From assembly GCA_018268655.1 (NCBI GenBank), contig JAFDWC010000016.1:1-32691 (forward strand): a stretch of DNA of 32,691 nt. Reading direction: 5' to 3'. The position numbers and the translations under genes were made by a program. Within the stretch, counting starts at the first letter, position 1. Every line of letters starts with the position of its first letter. Source of the stretch: Actinomycetota bacterium (GTDB lineage: Bacteria > Actinomycetota > Thermoleophilia > Solirubrobacterales > 70-9). A model generated the notes under the pieces. It was not told the origin of the DNA, searched no databases, and was given only the letters and a program-made list of their open reading frames with translations. This document shows positions 16,168 to 27,512 of this stretch, in pieces.

Positions 16168-16542
16168 ATGAACGGGTCACGAGACGTTGCGAAGGAGCCT
16201 GAGGACATCGCCCGACTCTTCGTCGAACGGGTCAACGCCGGGGATGCCGAAGGCCTCGCCGCGCTCTATGAGGAGGACGCCGTGATGGGCTTTCCCCCCG
16301 GACAGGTGACGGTCGGCCGCGAGGCGATCCGCGGCCTCTTCGACTCGATGGTCTCCGAGGCGCCTCGCTTCGAGATCGAGGAACCGCTGCCCACCCTGCG
16401 GCACGGTGATCTCGCCCTCACGGCGACGCGGCCGGCCGACGGCACCGGTGGCAGGGCCCAGGTCGCCAGACGCCAACCCGACGGAAGCTGGCTGCGGATC
16501 CTCGACCGCCCCGAGGCCGGGACGGGCCCGTCCGCGGAGTAG
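16168..16542 (+). CDS. NTF2/SnoaL-like protein
   Basis: 124 aa, ATG preceded by GGAGGTG at 16156-16162. The pattern fits the SnoaL/DUF4440-like NTF2 fold: an N-terminal helix pair (PEDIARLFVERVNAGDAEGLAALYEEDAVMGFPPG), VTVGREAIRGLFDSMVSEAPRFEIEEP, then beta strands ending in GSWLRILDRP. Such small cone-shaped proteins act as isomerases, hydrolases or ligand binders, and the role cannot be specified. It is divergent from the LysR gene and probably its target. An isochorismatase-like remnant follows directly on the same strand. Confidence 0.82.
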   Translation: MNGSRDVAKEPEDIARLFVERVNAGDAEGLAALYEEDAVMGFPPGQVTVGREAIRGLFDSMVSEAPRFEIEEPLPTLRHGDLALTATRPADGTGGRAQVARRQPDGSWLRILDRPEAGTGPSAE

Positions 16543-16547
16543 CGCTA

Positions 16548-16865
16548 GCCGCCGAGAACCGCCACACGCGCCTCGACTTCGGCACCACCCTGGAGGATCA
16601 TCTACGCACCGCGGGCGCCGACACCCTGGTCTTCGCCGGCTGCGACTTTCCCAACTGCCCGCGCAGCCCGATCTAAGAGGCGAGCGAGCGTGACTTCCGC
16701 TTCGTCGCCCGCGATGCGATCTCCGGCCTCTACGACCGGGGTGCGGCAGAGCTTGTCGCGATCGGCGTGGCCCTGGTCAGCGGCGACGAGCTCACGACGC
16801 GGTTACGTGGGCGAGCGGTAATGAGCCGCGCCGGGCAGTCGGGCCGCCGCGGAACGACCGCGTAA
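16548..16865 (+). pseudogene. Isochorismatase-like cysteine hydrolase remnant
   Basis: In one frame the sequence reads RLDFGTTLEDHLRTAGADTL, VFAGCDFPNCPRSPI, then a TAA stop at 16674-16676, and continues without a break as EASERDFRFVARDAISGLYD, RGAAELVAIGVALVSGDELT. The family consensus here has Tyr (SIYEASERDFR), so TAC has become TAA. The N-terminal half of the roughly 180-residue enzyme, including the catalytic Asp and Lys, is absent. The gene is therefore both truncated and stopped. Its end (ACGACCGCGTAAG) lies in a sequence similar to the mobile-element end at 17.63 kb. Confidence 0.78.
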
Positions 16866-16936
16866 GGCGCGTGCAGCTATTCGTGGGATCAGCGCCCACG
16901 AGCGGACACAATCCGAACCTGATGGCGCGGATTGAG
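16850..16936. repeat. Diverged copy of the element's left end
   Basis: About 87 bases resemble 17630-17718. CGACCGCGTAAGGC matches CGACCACCGTAAGCC with one gap. After nearly equal spacing (51 versus 53 bases), the 30-base stretch 16907-16936 matches 17689-17718 with two differences. The two copies bracket the transglutaminase-like gene. Confidence 0.6.
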
Positions 16937-16986
16937 CCGGGTTCGGTTTCGTTGACGACATTACGGCCCAATCGGGGCGTACGGCC

Positions 16987-17574
16987 TCAGAGGGTTGAGG
17001 GCAGGCCGTTAGCGCAGAGCGCCAGCATGTCGGTCGCCTGCGTTAGCGCGGCGACGACGGCCGGATGAGGCCAGATGAACAGGTCGGGGTAGTCGACCTC
17101 GCCCATCTCGGGCCTCATGGGCCATGCTAGCCGCTCGACCTCGAGCGAGAATTGGGCATCGACACCGGGCTTGTTCCCACGAGGGTCCAGCCGGTGCCAG
17201 GAGCCCTCGAGGAAGACGGCCACCAGGCCGTGCACGTAGAAGCTCTCCCCATCATCAGTCAGGCGCTGGTAGCAGAGCCCGGCGGGCACGCCCTCGGCGC
17301 GGAGAAGCGCCGTCAGGAGGTGGGCCTTGCAGTAGCAGAGCCCGACATGCTCACGGAGCGTGTCGGACGCCGAAACCGTTACCCGACGATCCTGGGCATC
17401 CCACGAATGAGCGACCTTGTCGCGTGCATACTCGAAGGCAGCCGCCGAGAACGCCACATCGTTCAGATCCTCGTTGCGTAGCTCGCGCGCGAGCGACGAA
17501 ACAGTCGGATGGGCGCCGTCGATGATCCGATCCGCAACCAAATACTCCGCTGGGTTGCCAGCGTTGAAGTGCAC
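16987..17574 (-). CDS. Transglutaminase-like protein
   Basis: 195 aa from the GTG at 17574; the same frame stays open to 17886, but that extension is Arg-rich, unlike the family, and crosses the element end. Catalytic triad of the transglutaminase-like superfamily: Cys80 in GLCYCKAHLLTALLRAEGVPAG, His115 in FYVHGLVAVFL and Asp130 in WHRLDPRGN. The N-terminal section (EYLVADRIIDGAHPTVSSLA) and the FEYARDKVAHSWD segment are typical. Bacterial members are usually cytosolic proteases or amide hydrolases of unknown substrate. The putative attachment core lies 57-71 bases upstream of the start, so its promoter region was probably altered by the insertion. Confidence 0.75.
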   Translation of the reverse strand: MHFNAGNPAEYLVADRIIDGAHPTVSSLARELRNEDLNDVAFSAAAFEYARDKVAHSWDAQDRRVTVSASDTLREHVGLCYCKAHLLTALLRAEGVPAGLCYQRLTDDGESFYVHGLVAVFLEGSWHRLDPRGNKPGVDAQFSLEVERLAWPMRPEMGEVDYPDLFIWPHPAVVAALTQATDMLALCANGLPSTL

Positions 17575-17906
17575 CGCCGCGATGCTATTCGGGCTTCCAT
17601 TTCGATGGCGCCATGAGAACGTGCGTAAGACGGTTCGACCACCGTAAGCCTCGGCGGTCCTCCCGGCCGTCGAGTGCCCCCGGCCGACCACAATCCGAAC
17701 CTGACGGCGCGGATCGAGGCTGAGCCGGTTTCTCTCGCGCGGTAGCGGTACTCGCGCATCGGCGCCACTCCCCGCGCATCCGCGCGTATCGACTCGCTTT
17801 GTGGCGGGCGTCGAGCTAACGTCGGCGACGCCAGACATAGAAGCGGCGACCCGCCGCGTTGGAGCGCGAACGGGCCGCCTAACCACAAGGAAGGCTGAGC
17901 TTCCCC
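17575..17906. other. Gene-free element left end
   Basis: No convincing gene lies in this 332-base gap. It contains the att core (17631-17645), the repeat shared with 16.9 kb (17689-17718) and a GTGCCCCCGGC motif (17674-17684). Just before the next gene is a small hairpin, GGAAG (17889-17893) with CTTCC (17900-17904), that would cover the AAGGAAGG ribosome-binding site of the gene at 17907. Confidence 0.6.
17631..17645. repeat. Left attachment-site core (att repeat copy 1)
   Basis: CGGTTCGACCACCGT is identical to 27307-27321 in direct orientation. In this copy it is followed by AAG, so in the recombinase reading phase (GTT CGA CCA CCG TAA) it supplies a stop codon at 17645-17647. It is also a partial palindrome (ACGGT...ACCGT). 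Confidence 0.7.
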
Positions 17907-18251
17907 ATGGCTAGCGATAACCCTACGGGCGGCGGCGGGACCGTTGCCCTCGATCTCACCGATGAGCAGCGGCGATTCCTGCTCTGCACTCTCCGCTACT
18001 GCAGGGCCGGACGCGAGGATGACCTACGGACTCACCCCGACCATCCCAATGCAGGGAGGTGGCGGACGGTCGCCGATGCCTACCGGCGCGTGATCGCCGG
18101 CATCGAGGCTGACGAGATCGCCCCCGACGATCTGGTCCGGCGCCTGGTCCGCGAGCTGGCCGATGCCAGCGATCGTGAAGAGGAGTACGAGCGCGTCGTC
18201 TTCGAGCACGATGCGCTCGCCGCTCTGTGCGAGCAGATCGGGGCGGGATGA
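17907..18251 (+). CDS. Hypothetical protein, first gene of the XRE operon
   Basis: 114 aa, ATG at 17907 with AAGGAAGG at 17887-17894. A Gly-rich start leads into a mostly helical, strongly acidic protein (LTDEQRRFLLCTLRYCRAGREDDL, WRTVADAYRRVIAGIEADEI, LVRRLVRELADASDREEEYERVVFEHDALAALCEQIG). There is no membrane segment. I do not recognise a family. The last codons overlap the ATG of the next gene (ATGATGA at 18248-18254), so it is co-translated with the XRE regulators, and a role in control or maintenance of the element is plausible. Confidence 0.75.
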   Translation: MASDNPTGGGGTVALDLTDEQRRFLLCTLRYCRAGREDDLRTHPDHPNAGRWRTVADAYRRVIAGIEADEIAPDDLVRRLVRELADASDREEEYERVVFEHDALAALCEQIGAG

Positions 18252-18550
18252 TGAGAGGCGGCGGCGGTGGCTTCGCGAGCCGCTTCGGTGCCAACCTCGC
18301 CTACTGCCGCAACCGGGCCGGAGACATCTCTCAGGAAGAGCTGGGGATGCGGGCCGATTTGCACCGCACGGCGGTTGGGCAACTGGAGCGAGGCGAACGG
18401 GTTGCCCGCACCGACACGCTGGTCAAGCTGGCTGGCTCGCTGCAAATCCCCTACGACGAACTGCTCGACGGGCTCCTCTGGACGCCGAGCATCCGGACGG
18501 CGGGCGCGATGGATATCGAGCCCTTCGCCGATCCGGAGGTGCCCCGATGA
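18248..18550 (+). CDS. XRE-family helix-turn-helix regulator 1
   Basis: 100 aa, ATG at 18248 overlapping the preceding stop. The Cro/C1-type HTH spans residues about 10-70: FGANLAYCRNRAGDISQEEL, GMRADLHRTAVGQLERGERV, ARTDTLVKLAGSLQIPYDELLDGL. It is a close relative of the following gene; both share the HRT, ERGE, R-T-D-T-L and ELLDGL landmarks. The C-terminal tail is short and acidic, with no ligand or peptidase domain. The stop overlaps the next ATG by four bases (ATGA). Confidence 0.9.
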   Translation: MMRGGGGGFASRFGANLAYCRNRAGDISQEELGMRADLHRTAVGQLERGERVARTDTLVKLAGSLQIPYDELLDGLLWTPSIRTAGAMDIEPFADPEVPR

Positions 18551-18858
18551 AGCCGCGCTACGAGGTCGCGGTCGGCCTCGGCGAGAACGTGCGCCGATGC
18601 CGCCGCCGCGCCGGTATTTCCCAGGAGGAGTTGAGCTTCCGTTCTTCGGTGCACCGGACCGACGTGAGCAAGATCGAGCGCGGCGAGAGCATGCCGCGAA
18701 CCGACACCCTCCTTAAGCTGGCGAGCGGGCTCGGTGTCGAGGCACAGGAGCTGCTCGACGGGCTCGCCTGGGAGCCGCCGCCGGCAGCCTCGCTGCCTTG
18801 GGGCTCGTTCCGGGTCGCTTCGAATGGCGGCACTCGTCAACGGGAGGCCACGCGATGA
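18547..18858 (+). CDS. XRE-family helix-turn-helix regulator 2
   Basis: 103 aa, ATG at 18547 in an ATGA overlap. HTH at residues about 8-70: VGLGENVRRCRRRAGISQEEL, SFRSSVHRTDVSKIERGESM, PRTDTLLKLASGLGVEAQELLDGL. It is about half identical to the upstream regulator, suggesting tandem duplication. Divergence lies in the recognition helix (HRTDVSKIERG versus HRTAVGQLERG), so the two proteins may bind different operators or form a heterodimer. It ends with another ATGA overlap into a small membrane protein. Confidence 0.9.
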   Translation: MKPRYEVAVGLGENVRRCRRRAGISQEELSFRSSVHRTDVSKIERGESMPRTDTLLKLASGLGVEAQELLDGLAWEPPPAASLPWGSFRVASNGGTRQREATR

Positions 18859-19160
18859 CCCTCTCGGCGCTCGGCACCCTGGCCCTCGCCCTGATTTGCG
18901 CCTGGCTCTTCGGTGGCATCGCACTTCGACTCGGGGGCGGCCTCGTCGCCCCCGGCGGCCTGGTCGGCCTGAGCCTTGCCGGCAATGCGAACGGCCTCCT
19001 GGTCTTCGCCCTCGGCGCCTGCCTTTGGCTTGCCGGCTACCTGCATTTCCGCCTGCGCCACGGATTCTTCAAGAGCGTGCTCGCGGAACGAGCGTGGCTG
19101 GTCACTGAAACCGTCTGGCAACGTGCATCGCCCAGCCGAGAGAGCAGACCGCCGCGCTGA
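18855..19160 (+). CDS. Small membrane protein coupled to the XRE pair
   Basis: 101 aa, ATG at 18855 overlapping the previous stop. Hydrophobic segments at residues about 2-22, 26-45 and 48-66 (the first and third strongest) are followed by a basic cytoplasmic tail, HFRLRHGFFKSVLAERAW and onward. No family is recognised. It is the fourth gene of an ATGA-linked unit (17907-19160), which indicates stoichiometric production with the regulators. A role in membrane sensing, exclusion or conjugal maintenance can only be guessed. Confidence 0.78.
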   Translation: MTLSALGTLALALICAWLFGGIALRLGGGLVAPGGLVGLSLAGNANGLLVFALGACLWLAGYLHFRLRHGFFKSVLAERAWLVTETVWQRASPSRESRPPR

Positions 19161-19267
19161 TTAGAGAGGAGTCGAGGCGGCCTGAAGCAACTTCCCCAGA
19201 ATTGGGCAGTAGAGATAAATCCAGGTCTTGCAGTCCGGACTAGGCGTTTGCATCCAGTAAGTCCGCG

Positions 19268-19273
19268 TATAAA
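19268..19273 (+). promoter_or_regulatory. Likely -10 box before the cargo block
   Basis: TATAAA at 19268-19273 lies in an A/T-richer gap, 29 bases before the ATG at 19302. No -35 with ideal spacing is seen; TTGCAT at 19248 is 14 bases away. It marks the probable start of a separate cargo transcript. Confidence 0.4.
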
Positions 19274-19301
19274 CTCGCCTTCCACGAGCGGGGGGGAACG
19301 A

Positions 19302-19499
19302 ATGCCGAATCCAGCAGACAATGAGCCAGACAGCGTGATTGCGGAGCTGTTGAAAAAGGGAGCACCGGGCGTCGAAACGGCCGTCCGGGCGGCCGAGGAA
19401 GTCGAGAGCGTCTACTACCGCGCAATCGCGGCAACGACTCCCGAGGTCCGGGTGAAGAGCGAATTGAATTCCGCTCACCCCGGCGTAGCCGCCCACTAG
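19302..19499 (+). CDS. Small acidic hypothetical protein (65 aa)
   Basis: ATG at 19302 with a GGGGGG ribosome-binding site at 19291-19296. The protein is soluble and helix-rich (DSVIAELLKKGAPGVETAVRAAEEVESVYYRAIAATTPEVR). It ends four bases before the start of the SppA/ClpP-type gene, so the pair is translationally linked. The small size and linked position would suit an accessory or inhibitor subunit for the protease-like protein, but this is inference only. Confidence 0.7.
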   Translation: MPNPADNEPDSVIAELLKKGAPGVETAVRAAEEVESVYYRAIAATTPEVRVKSELNSAHPGVAAH

Positions 19500-19503
19500 T
19501 CGG

Positions 19504-20439
19504 ATGCCAAATTGGGGCGAGCTCCAGGAAGAGCTCGCGGGGATTCAGGAGCAGGTCGCTGCTCAAGGCGTCGCGGACGTCGCCCCTGCCGACATCCTGC
19601 GACGGAAATACCTAACGATGCTGTCGCAGCAGACGGAACGAGCGACGATCCTCTACTACTCGGGCTTCCAGCAGAACCCTGGCGCAGCCCCCGTAGCGCT
19701 CTCCGTGACTACGGCTGACATGAACGGATTCATGCTCACCTGTTCCGGGCTCGATGGGCCACATCTCGATCTTTTCCTGCACAGCCCTGGCGGCGACCCC
19801 GATGCAGTCGAGCAAATCTGCTCCTACCTTCGAACCCGATTCGACCACATCCGAGCCATTGTTCCGTTGAACGCGATGTCGGCCGCAACGATGATGGCTC
19901 TCTCGGCTGACGAAATCCTGATGGGGGCGCACTCGCAGCTTGGGCCGATTGACCCGCAGATGACGATCGGTATGCCGGAGGGGCCACGCACCTACTCGGC
20001 CCAAGCGATCAAAGACCAATTCGCGCTCGCGGTCGAGGACTGCAAGGACCCCTCGAAGCTAAATGCCTGGATACCGATCTTGCGGTCATTCGCCCCTGGG
20101 CTTCTCGCGGCCTGTGACCATGCGAGCGAACGGGCACGAAACATCGTTGCCGATGCGTTGCGCGACTACATGTTCAAGGGGGACGACCAAGCCGAAGGAA
20201 AGGCTCATGCGGCGGCGGAGTGGTTCGGAGATGCTGCTCGCTTTCTCTCGCACGGTCATCCGGTTCGGCGTGAGGCGGCCCGAGAGCAAGGGATCGTTAT
20301 CCAGGATCTTGAGGGCCAGCCTGACCTACAAGATGCCGTCCTCAGCGTCCACCACTCCACCATCATCACTTTGGCCAACTGGGGCCTCGCGAAGCTGGTC
20401 GAAAACAACAACGGGCAGGTCTGGTCGCTCGCGGGATAA
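19504..20439 (+). CDS. SppA/ClpP-fold serine protease-like protein (SDH_sah type)
   Basis: 311 aa. The core resembles the serine dehydrogenase proteinase (PF01972) branch of the ClpP/crotonase fold: LDLFLHSPGGDPDAVEQICSYL at about 88-109, then VPLNAMSAATMMALSADEILMG with probable nucleophile Ser126, followed by HSQLGPIDPQ. An N-terminal helical segment has coiled-coil tendency (WGELQEELAGIQEQVAAQG). There is no signal peptide and no clear membrane helix. Family members are believed to be cytosolic or membrane-associated peptidases. Its ribosome-binding site lies within the preceding small gene. Its place on a mobile element makes a defence or regulatory proteolysis role possible. Confidence 0.82.
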   Translation: MPNWGELQEELAGIQEQVAAQGVADVAPADILRRKYLTMLSQQTERATILYYSGFQQNPGAAPVALSVTTADMNGFMLTCSGLDGPHLDLFLHSPGGDPDAVEQICSYLRTRFDHIRAIVPLNAMSAATMMALSADEILMGAHSQLGPIDPQMTIGMPEGPRTYSAQAIKDQFALAVEDCKDPSKLNAWIPILRSFAPGLLAACDHASERARNIVADALRDYMFKGDDQAEGKAHAAAEWFGDAARFLSHGHPVRREAAREQGIVIQDLEGQPDLQDAVLSVHHSTIITLANWGLAKLVENNNGQVWSLAG

Positions 20440-20510
20440 AGGTCGACCTTCCAAGCTCAGCCGCGGACACAGGAATTCCCATTTGACGCCGCTCGCGTAG
20501 TTAGCCTTCG

Positions 20511-20756
20511 ATGGTTGTGGAGGCCAGCGAGCCAGCAGCGGAGGTGTTCATCCTCGAGGAAGGGTTTGCGCCCGACTGGCCACAAGACATCCGCGAGCGG
20601 TGCGCCCAGCTCTTCAGCTACGACGCCGAGGAGATCCGGGGCAAGAATCGCCTCGGCTCGCTTTCCTTTGATGACGCCCCAGAGGCGGTCGAGGGGATCA
20701 AGCAGATCGTGCGAGACATCGCGCTCGAGCAGTGGACCAACTTCCCCCGAATCTGA
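20511..20756 (+). CDS. Hypothetical protein (81 aa)
   Basis: ATG at 20511, without a good ribosome-binding site. It is an acidic soluble protein: VEASEPAAEVFILEEGFAPDWPQDI, RERCAQLFSYDAEEIRG, KQIVRDIALEQWTNFPRI. Its non-random codon use and lower GC match the neighbouring cargo genes. It lies 71 bp after the protease-like gene. No family is recognised. Confidence 0.6.
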   Translation: MVVEASEPAAEVFILEEGFAPDWPQDIRERCAQLFSYDAEEIRGKNRLGSLSFDDAPEAVEGIKQIVRDIALEQWTNFPRI

Positions 20757-20801
20757 CCAGCCAAGGTCAGCGCCGAACCCCACGCTACCTTTGCTCGTCC
20801 T

Positions 20802-21233
20802 ATGTCCTTTGATTGGAACACAGAGATTCGCCCGGTACTCGATGCGCTCAACGCAGCGATCGACGTCAACGGGACCGGATATGCCGATAGCGGTGAGATC
20901 AATTCCATGCTTGGGAGGGACACCGAGGATCGCGCCACTGATCGTGCCCTCACCAAGCTCCGGGACGCAGGATTCATCAAGGGCTATCGAGGGGCAGAGG
21001 GGTGGTCGAATTGCACGCTGGAGGAGAAGGGCTTGCAGATCGTCGCAGGCTGGCCAACACGCCCGGGCGACGACACGTACGACCAGCTACTGGCGATCCT
21101 GGAGCAGCGCATCGAGTCGGCTTCGACCAACGAGGAGAAGTCGAAATGGGTCAAGCTCCGCGATGGATTCGCTAGCGCCGGCAGGGACTTCGCCATCGAC
21201 CTTCTGAGCAACCTTGCCGCTCAGAGCGCCTGA
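20802..21233 (+). CDS. Hypothetical winged-helix-like protein (143 aa)
   Basis: ATG at 20802. The first half (FDWNTEIRPVLDALNAAID, GEINSMLGRDTEDRATDRALTKLRDAGFIKGY, EGWSNCTLEEKGLQIVAGWP) has the helix-helix-helix-wing order of a small DNA-binding winged helix. The second half is a helical tail (YDQLLAILEQRIESASTNEEKSKWVKLRDGFASAGRDFAIDLLSNLAA). I associate this with an unnamed protein type found in actinobacterial accessory DNA. DNA binding is inferred from predicted fold only. Confidence 0.68.
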   Translation: MSFDWNTEIRPVLDALNAAIDVNGTGYADSGEINSMLGRDTEDRATDRALTKLRDAGFIKGYRGAEGWSNCTLEEKGLQIVAGWPTRPGDDTYDQLLAILEQRIESASTNEEKSKWVKLRDGFASAGRDFAIDLLSNLAAQSA

Positions 21234-21277
21234 CCTTCCGGCCCTACCTCGAAAACTTGAAGCCGTCCATGACGTAA

Positions 21278-22093
21278 GTGGCAGATCCGAGCCCTGACCA
21301 AGCCGACTGCCATCTTCGGGTCCTCGACCTCGACCTCGACTTCTTCATCGACGGGGTGGCACACTGGCGTACCGCGGATTCGGCGCGGCTCGATGCGGAG
21401 GAGTTCCCGCCGTGGCCACATGATGAGGCACTGCGCTTTCTTGAGGAGAGATGCCTTTTAGATGGTCGGCTACCTGGCATTGCCATAGAACACCATCGGG
21501 AACTCTTTCCCCGATGGAGAGCCGGCGTGGAAGCGGGGTCTCTCGCGGCCCCTTTTCACGTTACGCACGTCGATGCACATGCCGACCTCGGGCTCGGGGA
21601 AATCAGCTACCAATATCTGATGACTGAATTGCTCTTCGAGGCCCCAAAAGACCGTCTTTGGCCCAGGGAAGGGCCGGGTGGCCTCGATGACGGCAGCTTC
21701 CTGGCGTTCGCGATTGCCTGTCGCTGGATTTCCGATCTCGTCTACGTCTTCAACGACGGAGGCGGGAGCGATGTGTTCAGCTTCTTCAGAGAAGGCTTTG
21801 ATCCGGCAGCCGACCGCATCCAGCTTCCGGCGATGAATCGAGCCGAGATGGAAAAGGTTGCCGGCCTGCGGGGAGGAGAGTTTGGCAAAGGCAATGCGGA
21901 ACGGTTGGAGCCGAGCGTTCCGTTCGCAGAAGTTCCTTGGCACAGCTTTCAGGCCCCGGCGCCGTTTGACTTCATCTCTTTGACGCGCTCTCCCGCCTTC
22001 ACGCCGCCGGAGGCGGACGTGCTCTTCGATGAGATTCGGCGCAGATGGATAGACGAGTCGGCCGGAGAGTCGTTCCTCGGCGGGATGGCGTAG
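21278..22093 (+). CDS. UPF0489-family protein
   Basis: 271 aa, GTG start at 21278. The N-terminal VLDLDLDFFIDG (17-23 core) and HVTHVDAHADLGLG (His97, Asp99, His101, Asp103) are the hallmark of UPF0489 proteins, whose D-x-H-x-D motif resembles metal ligands of arginase-like ureohydrolases. A metal-dependent hydrolase role is likely, but the substrate is unknown. There is no ribosome-binding site of note. It is part of the lower-GC cargo block, 44 bp after the previous gene. Confidence 0.8.
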   Translation: MADPSPDQADCHLRVLDLDLDFFIDGVAHWRTADSARLDAEEFPPWPHDEALRFLEERCLLDGRLPGIAIEHHRELFPRWRAGVEAGSLAAPFHVTHVDAHADLGLGEISYQYLMTELLFEAPKDRLWPREGPGGLDDGSFLAFAIACRWISDLVYVFNDGGGSDVFSFFREGFDPAADRIQLPAMNRAEMEKVAGLRGGEFGKGNAERLEPSVPFAEVPWHSFQAPAPFDFISLTRSPAFTPPEADVLFDEIRRRWIDESAGESFLGGMA

Positions 22094-22176
22094 CCGAACA
22101 AGCGAACACTCGCTGTCAACCGGCACGCGAGAGAGGGCGCCGATAGCCATCCGACTCGACTGACAGCGTCAGGGGC

Positions 22177-22848
22177 ATGGGTGCGGTGGTGACGTGGACG
22201 GAAGTGGCCCAAGTTGTGATCGTCGGCGCGCAGCTGGCTGTGTTGATCGCCGCGGCTGTCGTTGCCTGGTACCAGGTTCGCGAGGCGCGGCACCTCCGCG
22301 AGCAGCAGATCCGGCCCTTCGTCGTAGTGGATTTCGACGTTGAAAGCGACACGAATGTCTACTTCCAGGTCAGCAATCTCGGCACGTCTCTCGCCCGCGA
22401 CGTGAAGATCGTTATCGACCCGCCGCTCGAAAGCGCGATCGACACCGATGTCGGCAGACTCAAGATGCTCAACGAGGGAATCGCGACTCTGGCGCCTGGC
22501 AAGGTCTACCGGACGTTCTTCGATATGGGTTTCCGTCGGGCCGAGACGGATCTACCGATGAACCACCTCGCGACGGTCACCTATGCCGACGAGACTGGCG
22601 AGCGTCCTTTCAGGGAGACGGTGAACCTCGATCTCGACCAGTACATGAACATGAAGTTCATCCAGAAGCGCGGCATCCATGATGTCCATAGGCAGCTTGA
22701 GTCCATCGGCAAGATCTTCGAGAAATGGGGTTGGGGCAACGGACAGGGCCTAATCGCAATGACTCCTGAGGAAGCACGCAGGGAGAACAACCGGATCATG
22801 GAGGAAATGCGGGAGCGTCAGCGCCAGCGCGAATCGACAGAGGATTAG
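22177..22848 (+). CDS. Single-pass membrane protein, unknown function
   Basis: 223 aa, ATG at 22177. One N-terminal helix (VVIVGAQLAVLIAAAVVAWYQV, about 13-34) is followed by REARHLREQQIRPFVVVDFD, then a soluble beta-rich domain (FQVSNLGTSLARDVKIVIDPPL, GIATLAPGKVYRTFFDMG) and a strongly charged helical C-terminus rich in Glu/Arg. The N-terminal arrangement (helix, Gln/Arg-rich linker, then a domain starting RPFVVV) is common to a widespread family of uncharacterised bacterial membrane proteins. It lies on the element cargo, 83 bp after the UPF0489 gene. Confidence 0.75.
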   Translation: MGAVVTWTEVAQVVIVGAQLAVLIAAAVVAWYQVREARHLREQQIRPFVVVDFDVESDTNVYFQVSNLGTSLARDVKIVIDPPLESAIDTDVGRLKMLNEGIATLAPGKVYRTFFDMGFRRAETDLPMNHLATVTYADETGERPFRETVNLDLDQYMNMKFIQKRGIHDVHRQLESIGKIFEKWGWGNGQGLIAMTPEEARRENNRIMEEMRERQRQRESTED

Positions 22849-22932
22849 CGAGAACAAGGCCTTGCGCCGTTCAGGTCCGCTGTGAAACTCTCGCCCAGCG
22901 GCGGGATTTCTACCTAACAGGAGGCGCAACCG

Positions 22933-23385
22933 ATGGACGCAAGCTACCCGAGGTACGAGGAGAGGGGCGAACCAGCAATCCGGTCGTCAGAGCGAGACGA
23001 ACGGCGCCACCTCACCAACTACAGGTGCCCCTACTGCGGCGGCCAATCCCTGCTGATCAGCTACGGGGACATTCCGGAAGACAAGTATCGAATTGAGCTG
23101 TACTGCGAGAACTCAAGTTGCGTGGTGCGGGAGATGACGATTATCGCCCTATGCACCGACACGGCTGTTTCCCAAGATCGAGCGGACGTCAGAGCGCTAC
23201 ACGTGGTCGACCGGGGGACCGAGGAGGAACAGGTCGCCGAAGGCTACGAGCTCATCCGTGATGAGGCCGGGAATGTAATCGGCCGGGGCATCTCTGCAGG
23301 GACAATGCTGAGCAACACGGACTTCGGAGCATCGACCCTTCGTCGACGGCAACGTCCCACGACGATTCAGGTCGGGCCGGACTAG
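22933..23385 (+). CDS. Zinc-ribbon hypothetical protein
   Basis: 150 aa, ATG with AGGAGGCG at 22919-22926. A four-cysteine zinc ribbon, CPYCGG at about 33-38 and YCENSSCVVREM about 25 residues later (C-x2-C and C-x5-C), is followed by an acidic region (HVVDRGTEEEQVAEGYELIRDE) and a basic tail (LRRRQRP). The ribbon suggests nucleic-acid or protein binding. No homologous family is recalled. It is the last clear gene of the cargo block. Confidence 0.75.
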   Translation: MDASYPRYEERGEPAIRSSERDERRHLTNYRCPYCGGQSLLISYGDIPEDKYRIELYCENSSCVVREMTIIALCTDTAVSQDRADVRALHVVDRGTEEEQVAEGYELIRDEAGNVIGRGISAGTMLSNTDFGASTLRRRQRPTTIQVGPD

Positions 23386-23495
23386 AAGCGTCCCACCCAC
23401 ATGGGCTAGCGCGGATCTACGGAAAGCAGTAATCCGAACGCATCCCCGCACATAACCCTTGACTTCCGCGCCGCACGGAGTTACGTCCTCGTGCG

Positions 23496-24005
23496 ATGCA
23501 CTCATTCAGCGAATCGCTAGCAGCACCAAGGCGGCGAGGATTCCGGCCTGTTTCCACCTGCGCTGATCTCCGCCTCGCCCCACCTTGCCAATCGCTCGAA
23601 TCCGAACGGCAAGCACCCAGCCCGACCATTCCGCACCGCTGCGCGGAGTCGTGGCCCACGCGGCGCGCCCGACTCTCTATCCACTCGGTATCTACACAGA
23701 GTCACGGTGGACCGCTCCTCCTCCTTCAGTCGCCTCACGGCTCGCGTCGCACCGCCCTCGACGCCCGCTGTCGCCTCCGCGCTAGCTACGCACCGCTTCT
23801 CCGGCTCGCCGGCCACGATCGCACTAGGCGCGACCGCGATCCCCTCGGCGCCGGGGACTCGGCGGCCCTCGGCGAGCGCGCCGGCGTCGACCCCACACAA
23901 GCCGCCCTTCGCGCCTGCGGCGCCGCCGGCGGCCGACAGGCGGCGCGAGCTTGGCGCTCGCTCGGGGCGGCGATCATCGCCGCGCTGGGAGGTCCGAGCG
24001 CTTGA
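23496..24005 (+). CDS. Doubtful ORF overlapping the replication-relaxation gene
   Basis: An open frame of 169 codons whose last 40 (GVDPTQAALRACGAAGGRQ, AARAWRSLGAAIIAALGGPSA) look protein-like and whose TGA overlaps the next start as TTGA (24002-24005). The N-terminal two thirds are Arg/Ser/Pro-rich and may be non-coding. There is no good ribosome-binding site near the ATG. Either a shorter real protein ends here, or this is a remnant of a lost upstream gene. The remainder of 23386-24001 holds nothing I can identify. Confidence 0.25.
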   Translation: MHSFSESLAAPRRRGFRPVSTCADLRLAPPCQSLESERQAPSPTIPHRCAESWPTRRARLSIHSVSTQSHGGPLLLLQSPHGSRRTALDARCRLRASYAPLLRLAGHDRTRRDRDPLGAGDSAALGERAGVDPTQAALRACGAAGGRQAARAWRSLGAAIIAALGGPSA

Positions 24006-25636
24006 CTCCTTCCGCCTCGGCGGCCCGCCGCCGCAATCGCTCGCGCTCGCGCAGACAGGCGCCGCCGCTCTCCGATCTCGATCAGCGCATTCTCTCGCTG
24101 CTCTCCCACCACCGGGTGCTGACGCAGAACCAGCTCGCGGCGATCGAGCCGCAGACGCCGGAGCGCACCCTGCGCTACCGCTGCGCCCGGCTCGCCCGGC
24201 GCGGGCTCCTCGGCCGCACCCGTCCTTACCGCGAACGGGGATCGGCGCCGCACCACCTGTGGCCGACCCGCAAGGGCGAGGCGATCGCCTGCGGCGGGCC
24301 GCCGCCGCGCGGCGGCGAGCGCCAAGAGCCGAACCCCCTATTCCTCGCCCATGCCGCCGGGCTCAGCGAGATCTACGTCGCGCTGGAGACGACGCTGCCG
24401 GCGGGCGTCGAGCTGGCCCGCTTCGAGCGCGAGGCCGAGGCGCGCGAGCCGTTCTCGACCTGGATGAAGCATGAGCAGCGGGCGATCGCCCCCGACGTCT
24501 TCATCGAGATCGCCGATGGTGACGGCGGGCCGCTCCTCGCCTTCATCGAGCTGGACATGGGGACGATGTCGCACCGGAGGCTCAAGCAGAAGGCGGCGGG
24601 CTACGCCGAGTACGCGAAGGCCGACGCCTGGCGCGAGCGCCACGACTTCTGCCCGGCCCTGCTATTCGTTACCACGACCGAGAAGCGCGCCCGCGCATTC
24701 CTCGCCGCGATGGAGAAGGAGCTGGGCCGCGATGCGTTGCTCCTGACCTGCGCATCCGATCTGGCGCGGCGGCTCGGTGGCATCGCGACCGAGGAGCGCT
24801 GGCTGCTCGGCACCGAGGGCGAGGACGCCGTCGACCTGCTGGGGGCTCTGCGCGAGGCACGTAGGCCCTGGGACGAAGAGCGCGAGCGAATCGCGACCGA
24901 GCGGCAGGAGGATGACGCCGAGCGCGAGCGCCTGCGCTCGGACCCCGCGGCGCTGCGCTCCCACCTGCGCTCTTGGCGCCGCCGTGAGTGGAGCGTTGAC
25001 GGCCTCGGCGAGGGGGTGGCGAGGCCGCTTGAGATCACCCTGGAGGGAGACGGCCCGCTCGCGGAGGCAGAGCACCGGGCGCTGCTCGCGCTCGGCGCGA
25101 TCTTCGCCGACCCGCTTCACTTCCGGCTCGCCGAGCGGGAACCGACCGTGCGAGAGTGCCGCGCCTTTGCCGACCTCGCCGACCACTGCCGCGCCGCGCA
25201 GCTTCGGAAAGTTGCCGATCTCGCCTTGCGCTTCGGCGAGGGACCGGAGCTGCGGGAGGCACGAAGGCAGATCGAGGCCAGCGAGCTGCTGAGCGCCTCA
25301 GACGCGCATTGGCTCGAACAGAAGGCCGCCGACGAGGAGCGCTCGCGCGCCGAGCAGGCGCGCCTTGCTGATGCCTACTTCGCCTGGCGCGAGGAGGAGG
25401 CGCGGCGGCTGTTCAAGGCAAAGGGCTTCGCCGCCCGGCTGCGCAGCGACCCCGGAGACTTCCTCGATGAGATCGACCGCCGCTCGCTGCGCCTCTGCCG
25501 TAGCTGCGAGGAGATCGCCTACCCCGACCCGAAGCGGGCGCGATACGAGCGCGCCCGCCAAGACATTGCCTTCCGCTGCCACTTCTGCGGCGGTGGGGCG
25601 CTCGCCGAGCTGGACGACGAGGGAGGCGCCCACTGA
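24002..25636 (+). CDS. Replication-relaxation family protein
   Basis: 544 aa from the TTG at 24002, chosen because GGGAGG lies about 9 bases upstream; an in-frame TTG at 23951 lacks one. The N-terminal winged helix (LDQRILSLLSHHRVLTQNQL, TPERTLRYRCARLARRGLLG) followed by HHLWPTRKGEAIACGG and LFLAHAAGLSEIYVALE, then a PDVFIEIAD and AFIELDMGTMSHRRLKQKAAGYAEYA core, fits the Replic_Relax family of plasmids and integrative elements of actinobacteria. These are thought to act at replication or transfer origins. A long charged helical region follows, then a C-terminal zinc ribbon (Cys499/Cys502 and Cys526/Cys529). It sits upstream of the recombinase in the standard element order. Confidence 0.85.
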   Translation: MTPSASAARRRNRSRSRRQAPPLSDLDQRILSLLSHHRVLTQNQLAAIEPQTPERTLRYRCARLARRGLLGRTRPYRERGSAPHHLWPTRKGEAIACGGPPPRGGERQEPNPLFLAHAAGLSEIYVALETTLPAGVELARFEREAEAREPFSTWMKHEQRAIAPDVFIEIADGDGGPLLAFIELDMGTMSHRRLKQKAAGYAEYAKADAWRERHDFCPALLFVTTTEKRARAFLAAMEKELGRDALLLTCASDLARRLGGIATEERWLLGTEGEDAVDLLGALREARRPWDEERERIATERQEDDAERERLRSDPAALRSHLRSWRRREWSVDGLGEGVARPLEITLEGDGPLAEAEHRALLALGAIFADPLHFRLAEREPTVRECRAFADLADHCRAAQLRKVADLALRFGEGPELREARRQIEASELLSASDAHWLEQKAADEERSRAEQARLADAYFAWREEEARRLFKAKGFAARLRSDPGDFLDEIDRRSLRLCRSCEEIAYPDPKRARYERARQDIAFRCHFCGGGALAELDDEGGAH

Positions 25637-25698
25637 TCGCGATAGCGACCGGCTCGGCACAACGGCGCCGCGGCGATGAGCACCCGGATCGGCTCGGC

Positions 25699-25869
25699 GT
25701 GCGGCCGGCGCGGCTGGTCCGCCGCAGCGGCGAGCGCTCGGCCGAGCTGCACGGCGCCCTGCGCACCCTCTACCGCGACTACCTGGCGGCCGGGGGACTT
25801 GACTCCGTGCGCGCGTCGAGGTGTCGTGGACGTTCGCGAACGGCGAGTAAGCGACGGAGGCCACGATGA
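25699..25869 (+). CDS. Possible small basic ORF coupled to the recombinase
   Basis: A 56-codon frame from the GTG at 25699 ends in TGA at 25867-25869, overlapping the recombinase ATG as ATGA. It reads VRPARLVRRSGERSAELHGA, LRTLYRDYLAAGGLDSVRA, then an Arg-rich tail. The middle forms a plausible amphipathic helix. There is no ribosome-binding site, and composition alone could create it. Its size and location would suit a recombination directionality factor, but no motif supports this. Confidence 0.3.
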   Translation: MRPARLVRRSGERSAELHGALRTLYRDYLAAGGLDSVRASRCRGRSRTASKRRRPR

Positions 25870-27512
25870 GGATCGCCACCTACACCCGGATCTCGACCGA
25901 CGAGGTCACCCAGCCCTACTCGCTGGAGGCCCAGGCGGTCCGGCTCGATTCCTATGCAGAGAGTCAGGAGGACTGGCGGATCGTCCGCCGCTTCACCGAC
26001 CAGGCGTCGGGCGCGATCCTCGAGCGCGACGGCCTGGAACGGGCGCTGCGTGAGGCCGAGGCGGAGCGGTTCGATCTCCTGCTCGTCTACCGCGTCGATC
26101 GCCTCTCGCGATCGGTGCGGGGGTTGGCGCAGATCCTTGAGCGCCTTGACGCCGCCAAGGTTCTGTTCCGCTCGGCGACCGAGCCGTTCGACACCGCCAG
26201 CTCGGCCGGGCGGATGATGGTGCAGCTCCTCGGCGTCTTCGCCGAGTTCGAGCGGGCGACGATCGTGGAGCGCACGATCGCCGGGATGGAGCGAAAGGCG
26301 GCGCGCGGCGAGTGGACCGGCGGCTCGGTGCCCTACGGCTATCGCCTTGACCCTGAGCGGCGCTTCCTCGTCCCCGAGCCGAGCGAGGCGTCGGTCGTGC
26401 CGCAGATCTTCCGCCGCTACGCCGAGCGGCTTGAGGGCTCCTCGGCGCTGGCAAGCTGGCTGAGCGAGCGCGGCCTGCGGACGCGAGGTGACAAGCCGTT
26501 CAACAATCACGCCGTCCTCAGCATCCTGCGCAACCGCGCCTACGTCGGCGAGATCTTCTTCCGCGGCAACCACTACCCCGCCCCGCACGAGCCGCTGGTC
26601 GATCCGGCGCTCTTCGAGCGCGCCCAGGAGGTCTTGCGCGAGCGCAGCGAGGACGTATCGCTGCGGCGCTCGAACAAGTCCGAATACCTGCTCACCGGTC
26701 TCGTCAAGTGCGCGCGCTGCGGCAAGCGCTACGTCGGCGCCGCGGCGAAGGGCAACGGCGGCCGCTATCGCTACTACGTCTGCTTCTCGCGCCAGCGCTA
26801 CGGCAAACGCTCCTGCGACGGCGACCGGCTGGCGGCCGACGAGCTGGAGGAGGCGATCCTCGCGCAGCTCCTCTCGGTGCTCGAACGCGAGCCGGTTGTT
26901 CGGGAGGCGATCGCCTCGGCCTTCGAGGAGCTTGAGGCCGAGGCACCGCAGCGCGAGGAGGAGATCGCCCGGATCGACGCCGAGGCGAAGCGTGTCGGCG
27001 AATCGCTCGACCGCTACTTCCGCGCCTTCGAGGAGGGCTCGATGCCGGAGTCGGCCTGCGCGCCGCGGATCGATGAGCTGAGCGGGAAGCTGCGCGGCCT
27101 CAAGGCGCGGCGTGAGGAGCTGGGCGCCGAGGAGCCCGATGAGCATGAGCCGCTGAGCGACGAGGACCTGGAGCTGCTGGTCGCGCACGTGCGGGAGGTG
27201 ATCGAGGGCGGCGACCCCCCGACCCGCAAGGCGCTCCTGCAATCGCTGGTCGAGGAGATCCGCGTCGTCAGCCGCGCGGAGATCTACCCGTCCTTTTCTT
27301 TGCCTGCGGTTCGACCACCGTGCGGGTCAGTGCCCCCGGCTGGATTCGAACCAGCGACCGTCGGATTAGAAGTCCGATGCTCTATCCAGCTGAGCTACGG
27401 GGGCTCAGCGGGAAGGGTAGATGCGGAGCGCGGCGGCGGGCTGCTCGGCCGGAGGGTCTATTCCGGTTTGCATTCGCCGGGGTTGAGCTTGCCGTTGATC
27501 TTGAAGACGTAG
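25866..27512 (+). CDS. Large serine recombinase, reading through tRNA-Arg
   Basis: 548 codons as integrated. Catalytic domain: RIATYTRISTDE with nucleophile Ser10, VYRVDRLSRSVRGLAQ, and ATEPFDTASSAGRMMVQLLGVFAEFERATIVERT. It is followed by the recombinase domain (VPYGYRLDPE, NNHAVLSILRNRAYVGEIFFRG) and the zinc ribbon Cys282, Cys285, Cys306, Cys317. A coiled-coil region comes next (about 340-430). Conserved protein ends near RIRVVSRAEIYPSF (about 475). After residue 485 the frame crosses the att repeat, the antisense of tRNA-Arg and chromosomal sequence, adding 63 residues that are not part of the family. In the circular form a TAA would follow residue 485. It catalyses integration and excision of the element. 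Confidence 0.93.
   Translation: MRIATYTRISTDEVTQPYSLEAQAVRLDSYAESQEDWRIVRRFTDQASGAILERDGLERALREAEAERFDLLLVYRVDRLSRSVRGLAQILERLDAAKVLFRSATEPFDTASSAGRMMVQLLGVFAEFERATIVERTIAGMERKAARGEWTGGSVPYGYRLDPERRFLVPEPSEASVVPQIFRRYAERLEGSSALASWLSERGLRTRGDKPFNNHAVLSILRNRAYVGEIFFRGNHYPAPHEPLVDPALFERAQEVLRERSEDVSLRRSNKSEYLLTGLVKCARCGKRYVGAAAKGNGGRYRYYVCFSRQRYGKRSCDGDRLAADELEEAILAQLLSVLEREPVVREAIASAFEELEAEAPQREEEIARIDAEAKRVGESLDRYFRAFEEGSMPESACAPRIDELSGKLRGLKARREELGAEEPDEHEPLSDEDLELLVAHVREVIEGGDPPTRKALLQSLVEEIRVVSRAEIYPSFSLPAVRPPCGSVPPAGFEPATVGLEVRCSIQLSYGGSAGRVDAERGGGLLGRRVYSGLHSPGLSLPLILKT
27307..27321. repeat. Right attachment-site core (att repeat copy 2)
   Basis: CGGTTCGACCACCGT, identical to 17631-17645, lies in the 3' coding part of the recombinase (codons for AVRPP) and 9 bases before the 3' end of tRNA-Arg. 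Here it is followed by GCGGGTCAG, presumably chromosomal. Confidence 0.7.
27331..27404 (-). tRNA. tRNA-Arg (anticodon TCT)
   Basis: A complete cloverleaf of 74 bases on the minus strand: acceptor GCCCCCG paired with CGGGGGC plus discriminator A, D-arm with AGCTCAGCTGGATAGAG, anticodon stem TCGGA/TCCGA with loop CTTCTAA (anticodon TCT, reading AGA), and T-arm GCTGGTTCGAATCCAGC. CCA is not encoded. The 3' end points to the integrative element, whose right att repeat ends 9 bases away. Confidence 0.97.

What the first reader, a model, noticed from the sequence alone, without database searches (positions are those of the whole stretch)
27290..27512. Recombinase stop codon is lost on integration: the attachment core lies in the 3' end of its own gene
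Seen: the recombinase frame contains CGGTTCGACCACCGT at 27307-27321 and then runs through antisense tRNA-Arg to a stop at 27510. The same 15 bases at 17631-17645 are followed, in the same codon phase (GTT CGA CCA CCG), by TAA. Joining the ends would give a 485-residue recombinase ending AVRPP; integration replaces that stop with 63 residues encoded by host DNA. This resembles integration-dependent switches in some mycobacteriophages, where attP lies inside a regulatory gene. The tail could alter activity, stability or directionality of the integrated-state protein.
Basis: partly seen in the sequence, partly recalled or inferred. Interest (0 to 1): 0.82.

Follow-up and report, generated by a model that had tools for sequence, protein, structure and literature searches.

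The report
Integrase gene overlapping its attachment site
A mobile DNA element in an actinobacterium splices itself into the end of a tRNA gene, and because its attachment site overlaps the end of its own integrase gene, each insertion swaps the integrase's last residues for ones read backwards from the tRNA; relatives across actinobacteria share the layout.

Summary
In detail: ORF 25866-27512 encodes a large serine recombinase that runs into antisense tRNA-Arg(TCT), and the 15-mer occurs at 17631 and 27307. The central idea, that attP overlaps the gene's 3' end so integration replaces its C-terminus, is supported. The proposed junction is wrong. The 15-mer is an element-borne outer arm of attP: it sits beside Arg, Leu and Glu tRNA genes in other genomes but not beside empty tRNA-Arg sites. 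The exchange lies at the tRNA 3' end, inside the shared GTGCCCCCGGC (27330-27340 / 17674-17684). The reconstructed attP is GGTTCG-N16-GTG-N19-CGAACC; the tRNA T-arm supplies CGAACC exactly 5 bp closer to the core, matching the published attP/attB rule. The free form would be 511 residues ending ...EAEPVSLAR, not 485 ending AVRPP; the TAA at 17646 lies outside the element. A strongly supported clade of relatives, beside tRNA-Ala, Val, Leu, Lys or Arg genes, keeps the arm in one codon phase (21 of 21); one contig carries an unsplit attP. The swapped tail follows the last ordered strand of the predicted fold. A functional switch is untested. Closest precedent: phage Mx8 intP/intX.

The parts
17674..27333 (+). 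integrated element (about 9.66 kb) carrying an HTH regulator, a ClpP-like protease, a Replic_Relax protein and the serine recombinase; exchange inferred inside GTGCCCCCGGC at each end
   Evidence: both ends defined by P and P' arms and the shared core; relatives with the same end sequences: L109 (4.49 kb), G362:C22 (3.64 kb)
25866..27512 (+). large serine recombinase, integrated-state ORF, 548 aa (residues 1-488 element, about 489-548 read from antisense tRNA and host flank)
   Evidence: Pfam Resolvase, Recombinase, Zn_ribbon_recom; predicted fold matches SPbeta, Bxb1, phiC31 and A118 integrases
   Evidence: same motif and spacing, same codon phase in 21 of 21 relatives
27330..27340 (.). right core GTGCCCCCGGC (attR); crossover by attP symmetry at about 27332-27333
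   Evidence: direct repeat of 17674-17684; inverted symmetry of relatives' attP centred there
27330..27404 (-). tRNA-Arg(TCT), the target, left complete by integration; base 73 would come from the element
   Evidence: ARAGORN; the same tRNA locus in related genomes without the element
27347..27352 (.). CGAACC of the tRNA T-arm, proposed B' zinc-ribbon-domain motif, starting 17 bp after the first core base
   Evidence: at +17 in the tRNA-adjacent relatives examined
17674..17684 (.). left core GTGCCCCCGGC (attL)
17674..17701 (+). attP P' arm, CGAACC at 17696-17701 (22 bp after the first core base)
   Evidence: matches left ends of L109 and G362:C22; 16 of 16 score, 0 of 40 shuffles reach it
17685..17745 (+). 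3' tail of the recombinase gene in the circular form (DHNPNLTARIEAEPVSLAR, stop TAG 17743-17745), separated from the rest by integration
   Evidence: in-frame joining of the two ends
17631..17645 (.). left copy of the 15-mer: outside the element; P-arm-like relic, 42 bp from the left core
   Evidence: similar displaced copy in G010:C212
16892..16950 (+). second P' arm: left end of a decayed tandem relative ('element A')
   Evidence: 78% match to 17673-17732; motif hit
23951..25636 (+). Replic_Relax (PF13814) replication-relaxation protein
   Evidence: Pfam 3.6e-24
18163..18858 (+). HTH_3 regulator
   Evidence: Pfam 3.4e-13
19504..20439 (+). ClpP-like SDH-type serine protease
   Evidence: Pfam 1e-15

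Best explanation
[quoted passage not shown] attP spans the 3' end of the recombinase's own gene: the left (P) arm is coding, the crossover falls at codons 489-490, and in the circle the frame continues through the P' arm to a stop (TAG 17743-17745), giving a 511-residue protein. The recombinase uses GGTTCG/CGAACC as its zinc-ribbon-domain motif. The universal T-arm of the tRNA supplies that motif 5 bp closer to the core than in attP, so the tRNA 3' end serves as one attB half-site. Integration leaves the tRNA complete and replaces the last 23 residues of the recombinase by a tail read from antisense tRNA (here 60 residues, 12-20 in many relatives). Shown by sequence: the two ends, the motif geometry, the conserved codon phase, an unsplit attP in a relative, and the same layout at several tRNA species. 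Inferred: the exact crossover base pair, the circle, motif recognition by the zinc ribbon domain, and that both tails are translated. Not shown: any effect of the tail on activity.
For: Large serine recombinase: Pfam triad, conserved R8, S10, D78, R79, R82, Foldseek to SPbeta, Bxb1 and A118 integrases. Ends: best left-end match in 12 kb is 17674, 16/16, none of 40 shuffles reaches it; L109 likewise. Five elements with both ends, and one contig with P and P' contiguous (G280:C194, 7521-7571) where the ORF reads straight across attP. P' motif at +22 and tRNA motif at +17, matching the 5-bp shift of the zinc-ribbon motif between attP and attB (PMC3783163). attP inverted symmetry centred on the core in three relatives, 15-18 of 24 pairs. 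P arm in one codon phase in 21 of 21 relatives despite different spacer lengths before it. 100/100-supported clade of relatives beside tRNA-Arg, Lys, Leu, Ala or Val genes or tRNA-like sites. Empty tRNA-Arg sites in the genus share only the tRNA, not the arm.
Against: The left junctions of G362:C22, G360:C24 and G360:C38 are not significant by the score alone; they rest on resemblance to other P' arms or on P/P' inverted symmetry. By symmetry the window's core dinucleotide would be GC, which is palindromic and should not enforce orientation. The lengths of the free tails (21-34 codons) are what random stops would give. The window's own P/P' arms are only weakly symmetric (11 of 24). No circular junction was seen, and no empty site of the same strain is held.
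Confidence: 0.86

Rival explanations
1. One reading: the core is the 15-mer, the circle joins 27321 to 17646, and the free recombinase is 485 aa ending AVRPP.
For: Exact 15-bp repeat in the right phase with TAA after the left copy.
Against: The 15-mer and the following 8-10 bp travel with the recombinase to other tRNA genes. Left ends of relatives start at GTGCCCCCGGC-like cores, not at the 15-mer. Only one of 12 related tRNA-Arg sites has the 15-mer close by, and that one is a recombinase scar. The left copy lies 42 bp from the left core, not 22.
Confidence: 0.05
2. Same geometry as the best explanation, but the overlap is passive: attP simply abuts the gene, the frame reads on by lack of a stop, and neither tail matters. 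(This and the next rival divide the functional question; both are compatible with the best explanation's anatomy.)
For: The tail is predicted disordered (residues 481-548 under pLDDT 50) and follows the last strand, residues 473-478. Free-tail lengths fit random stops. Tails differ between relatives.
Against: P arm kept in one codon phase in 21 of 21 sequences across deep divergence, and V-S-L kept with synonymous codon changes in the tails of the window and L109.
Confidence: 0.6
3. Same geometry, and the tail swap is a real integration-state switch, as in phage Mx8.
For: Conserved overlap in frame; fixed frame of the tRNA tail (GxEPxT) in most relatives; Mx8 precedent.
Against: No functional data. 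Integrated-state tail lengths vary from 11 to about 60. No degradation-type C-termini.
Confidence: 0.2
4. Assembly artefact of the metagenome bin.
For: The genome is a 335-contig bin, 79% complete.
Against: The same end sequences and arrangement recur in independent genomes.
Confidence: 0.03

Closest known systems
Phage Mx8 intP/intX of Myxococcus (PMC6070905; Tojo 1996 and Magrini 1999 as cited there)
   Same: attP inside the integrase gene; integration gives the integrase a new C-terminus; integrated form altered but not inactivated
   Different: As I recall a tyrosine-type integrase (not checked here); here a large serine recombinase, a small integrative element, many tRNA species, and a lineage-wide arrangement
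Large serine recombinases (A118/LI, Bxb1, phiC31, SPbeta)
   Same: Domain order, fold and attP/attB geometry including the 5-bp shift of the zinc-ribbon motif
   Different: The well-known members target protein genes or intergenic sites (own knowledge); this clade uses the tRNA T-arm as half of attB, and its attP is in-frame coding sequence
Serine-recombinase AICEs in Mycobacterium tRNA-Leu (PMC3218068)
   Same: Serine recombinase integrating at a tRNA gene in Actinobacteria
   Different: Overlap of attP with the gene not mentioned in the passages read; relationship to this clade not tested
phiRSM filamentous phages, tRNA-Ser (PMC3816273)
   Same: Serine recombinase with attP/attB identical to a tRNA 3' end in reverse orientation
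   Different: Described as homologous to small serine recombinases; attP lies between ORF14 and ORF15
SSV-type archaeal integrases (PMC4383910 names SSV with Mx8)
   Same: Integrase gene extends across attP
   Different: Tyrosine family; integration partitions the gene (from memory)
Integration-dependent immunity of mycobacteriophages (PMC8092301)
   Same: attP inside a gene; integration changes its C-terminus
   Different: The gene is the repressor; the effect runs through -AA degradation tags

Membership tests
Large serine recombinase | Resolvase domain followed by Recombinase and zinc-ribbon domains | tested here: met
   Pfam 6.9e-39, 1.6e-17, 5.3e-17
Large serine recombinase | Catalytic serine and active-site arginines | tested here: met
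   R8, S10, D78, R79, R82 invariant or nearly so
Large serine recombinase | Fold of solved integrases | tested here: met
   Foldseek to 9dxd (SPbeta), 9iu2 (Bxb1), 4kis (A118), E 1.4e-14 or better; pTM of the model is modest, 0.41
Large serine recombinase | attP with zinc-ribbon motifs 5 bp further from the core than in attB | tested here: met
   CGAACC at +22 (P') and +17 (tRNA); the B-side half could not be compared because host flanks are variable
Large serine recombinase | Non-palindromic core dinucleotide | tested here: inconclusive
   Symmetry puts GC at the centre in the window; exact crossover unknown
Integrase with attP inside its own gene (Mx8-like arrangement) | Integrase ORF extends across attP | tested here: met
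   Direct in G280:C194; by reconstruction in five elements
Integrase with attP inside its own gene (Mx8-like arrangement) | Integrated form has altered activity | not testable with these tools
   needs assays
Tyrosine-type tRNA island | Element carries a long copy of the tRNA 3' part that restores the gene | tested here: not met
   Only 11-12 bp shared; tRNA complete without it

The most novel reading that the evidence does not exclude
A lineage of actinobacterial large serine recombinases has turned the universal tRNA T-arm into half of its attB, and has kept its own gene in frame across attP so that the enzyme carries one C-terminal tail when free and a tRNA-encoded GxEPxT-type tail when integrated, marking and controlling the two states of the element.
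Probability: 0.2. Interest if true: 0.82.

Novelty: new variant of a known kind. Interest (0 to 1): 0.62.

Why it matters
Serine recombinases at tRNA genes were described as rare (2011) or unknown (2014). Here is a supported clade with a simple reading of how they do it: the T-arm is the zinc-ribbon motif and sits exactly where attB needs it. That predicts target choice from tRNA sequence and adds recombinases with short, universal half-sites. The overlap of attP with the gene makes the question 'does the C-terminal tail of a serine integrase report or control its state' testable with 511- and 548-residue forms. It also explains why recombinases of this kind can end in GFEPAT-like antisense-tRNA peptides.

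Tried and rejected
The 15-mer as core: rejected. Looking for unintegrated attP in IMG/VR by pattern: 37 hits, five in records that hold serine recombinases of another type, at unrelated positions; none of this clade. Left ends in IMG/VR proviruses: records appear trimmed before attL, none found. Left end of G252 and of G360:C64: no convincing P' arm. Plasmid and phage collections: the best-listed records are only distant serine recombinases. A second attP-pattern search in 399 genomes gave G280:C194 and two sites (L267, L268) without a recombinase of this clade within 1.5 kb. -AA degradation tags as in mycobacteriophages: none among the tails. Selection on the free tail: only a V-S-L hint, not enough sequences. 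Structure of the 511-aa circular form: not submitted, since that sequence is not in the window letter for letter.

Full report
Observation. The recombinase ORF 25866-27512 (+) is open for 548 codons and runs through the antisense strand of tRNA-Arg(TCT), 27330-27404. The 15-mer CGGTTCGACCACCGT is exact at 17631 and 27307, more than chance, and TAA follows the left copy in the stated phase. A second repeat, AGTGCCCCCGGC, at 17673 and 27329, was missed; its spacing differs from that of the 15-mer by 20 bp, so only one of the two can mark the crossover.

What the protein is. Pfam finds Resolvase, Recombinase and zinc-ribbon domains; the predicted model (mean pLDDT 76, pTM 0.41) matches SPbeta, Bxb1, phiC31 and A118 integrases. 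It is a large serine recombinase. The element also carries an HTH regulator, a ClpP-like protease and a Replic_Relax protein. Named relatives are Thermoleophilia/Solirubrobacterales bins; the window's genome is a 335-contig bin.

Which repeat is the core. In empty tRNA-Arg sites of the same genus and family only about 27329-27404 is shared; the 15-mer is absent beside the tRNA in 11 of 12 related sites, and the twelfth, G008, carries a recombinase scar. Conversely the stretch GCGGTTCGACCACCG..GGRTCAGT moves with the recombinase: it sits beside tRNA-Arg(CCT) in L107, tRNA-Leu(TAG) in L110 and tRNA-Glu(CTC) in L111, and in the same order in L109. So 27307-27329 is element DNA, and the junction is at the tRNA 3' end.

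Left end. Searching for the tRNA-side core followed by the CGAACC motif finds 17674 (16 of 16; best of 40 shuffles 14) and, in L109, position 4252 (16 of 16; best shuffle 13). The following sequence, GTGCCCCCGGCCGACCACAATCCGAACC, recurs with changes at the left end of L109 and G362:C22, and at 16892 in the window, where it is taken as the left end of a decayed tandem relative. Upstream of these starts the sequences differ. The left 15-mer at 17631 is therefore outside the element.

Geometry. In the reconstructed attP GGTTCG starts 22 bp before the first core base (27330) and CGAACC starts 22 bp after it; in the tRNA CGAACC starts 17 bp after it. This 5-bp difference is the rule reported for the zinc-ribbon motif of serine integrases in attP versus attB (PMC3783163). 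In three relatives the arms form an inverted repeat centred between the third and fourth core bases, 15-18 of 24 pairs; the window's own attP gives 11 of 24 at the same centre, its second-best. That places the crossover at about 27332-27333 and 17676-17677. The dinucleotide there would be GC, palindromic; this is unexplained.

Gene and site overlap. The P arm is in the same codon phase in 21 of 21 relatives examined, although the spacer between the conserved domain and the arm varies from about 36 to 60 codons; a decayed fragment in G008:C31 is out of phase. In five elements with both ends the frame crosses the core and stops 21-34 codons later; in G280:C194 the P and P' arms are contiguous and the frame reads across them to a stop. 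For the window the circle would encode 511 residues, ending AVRPPCGSVPPADHNPNLTARIEAEPVSLAR, with the stop at 17743-17745. In the integrated state the last 23 residues are replaced by 60 from antisense tRNA-Arg and its flank; in many relatives the replacement is 12-20 residues of GxEPxT type. Random stops would give similar free-tail lengths, so selection on that tail is not shown.

Clade. Recombinases with this layout (16 rows) form a 100/100-supported group in a tree of 26; ten serine recombinases without it fall outside, L119 being the nearest. Targets in the tree are Arg, Lys, Leu, Ala and Val tRNA genes; two closely related copies in one genome (L159, L163) use tRNA-Val and tRNA-Ala. L109 keeps only 23 nt of a tRNA at its right end and G360:C38 has no recognisable tRNA there, which suits recognition of a half-site rather than of a whole tRNA.

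Effect. The last ordered strand of the model ends at residue 478 and residues 481-548 are below pLDDT 50, so the swap leaves the catalytic and DNA-binding parts intact. In phage Mx8, where attP also lies in the integrase gene, the new 3' end is reported to change the enzyme's specificity without inactivating it (PMC6070905). Whether that holds here is open.

Literature. Islander (2014) states that only tyrosine integrases were known to target tRNA genes (PMC4383910); Ghinet 2011 calls serine-mediated tRNA integration rare and lists Mycobacterium AICEs and phiRSM1 (PMC3218068). In the library searched no paper was found that describes attP overlapping a serine recombinase gene at tRNA sites; this is a limited search of open-licence papers.

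Noticed in passing
window 16892-17673: Decayed tandem relative: a second P' arm at 16892 and a P-arm-like 15-mer at 17631, with a transglutaminase-like ORF between; the ORF call 16987-17886 crosses the boundary at 17674, so its N-terminus is doubtful.
   Followed up: partly
window 17631; L078:792; G360:C24 about 36470: P-arm-like copies lie near left junctions or tRNA remnants at odd distances (42, 41 and 19 bp instead of 22). Possibly old right junctions whose spacing was changed and which could then be targeted again.
   Followed up: no
window 1620-27330: The tRNA-Arg(TCT) locus is an insertion hotspot: in G001 about 410 bp separate the flank matching window 1620 from the tRNA, in the window 25.7 kb.
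   Followed up: partly
L078 840-1800 (G010): About 950-bp insert, by eye MntA/HepT-like nucleotidyltransferase and HEPN genes (not searched), between a duplicated 3' part of tRNA-Arg and the full gene; looks like a tyrosine-type tRNA island.
   Followed up: no
L267 1501-1551, L268 1164-1214: Conserved GGTTTG-N16-ATG-N19-CGAACCG site in two genomes of one genus, no serine recombinase of this clade within 1.5 kb.
   Followed up: partly
L109 7277-8748: Recombinase gene of L109 appears frameshifted near codon 300; could be a sequencing error or a dead copy.
   Followed up: no
window 16540-16690: By eye, isochorismatase-like coding fragment with an in-frame stop just left of the tandem relative; a gene relic.
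   Followed up: no
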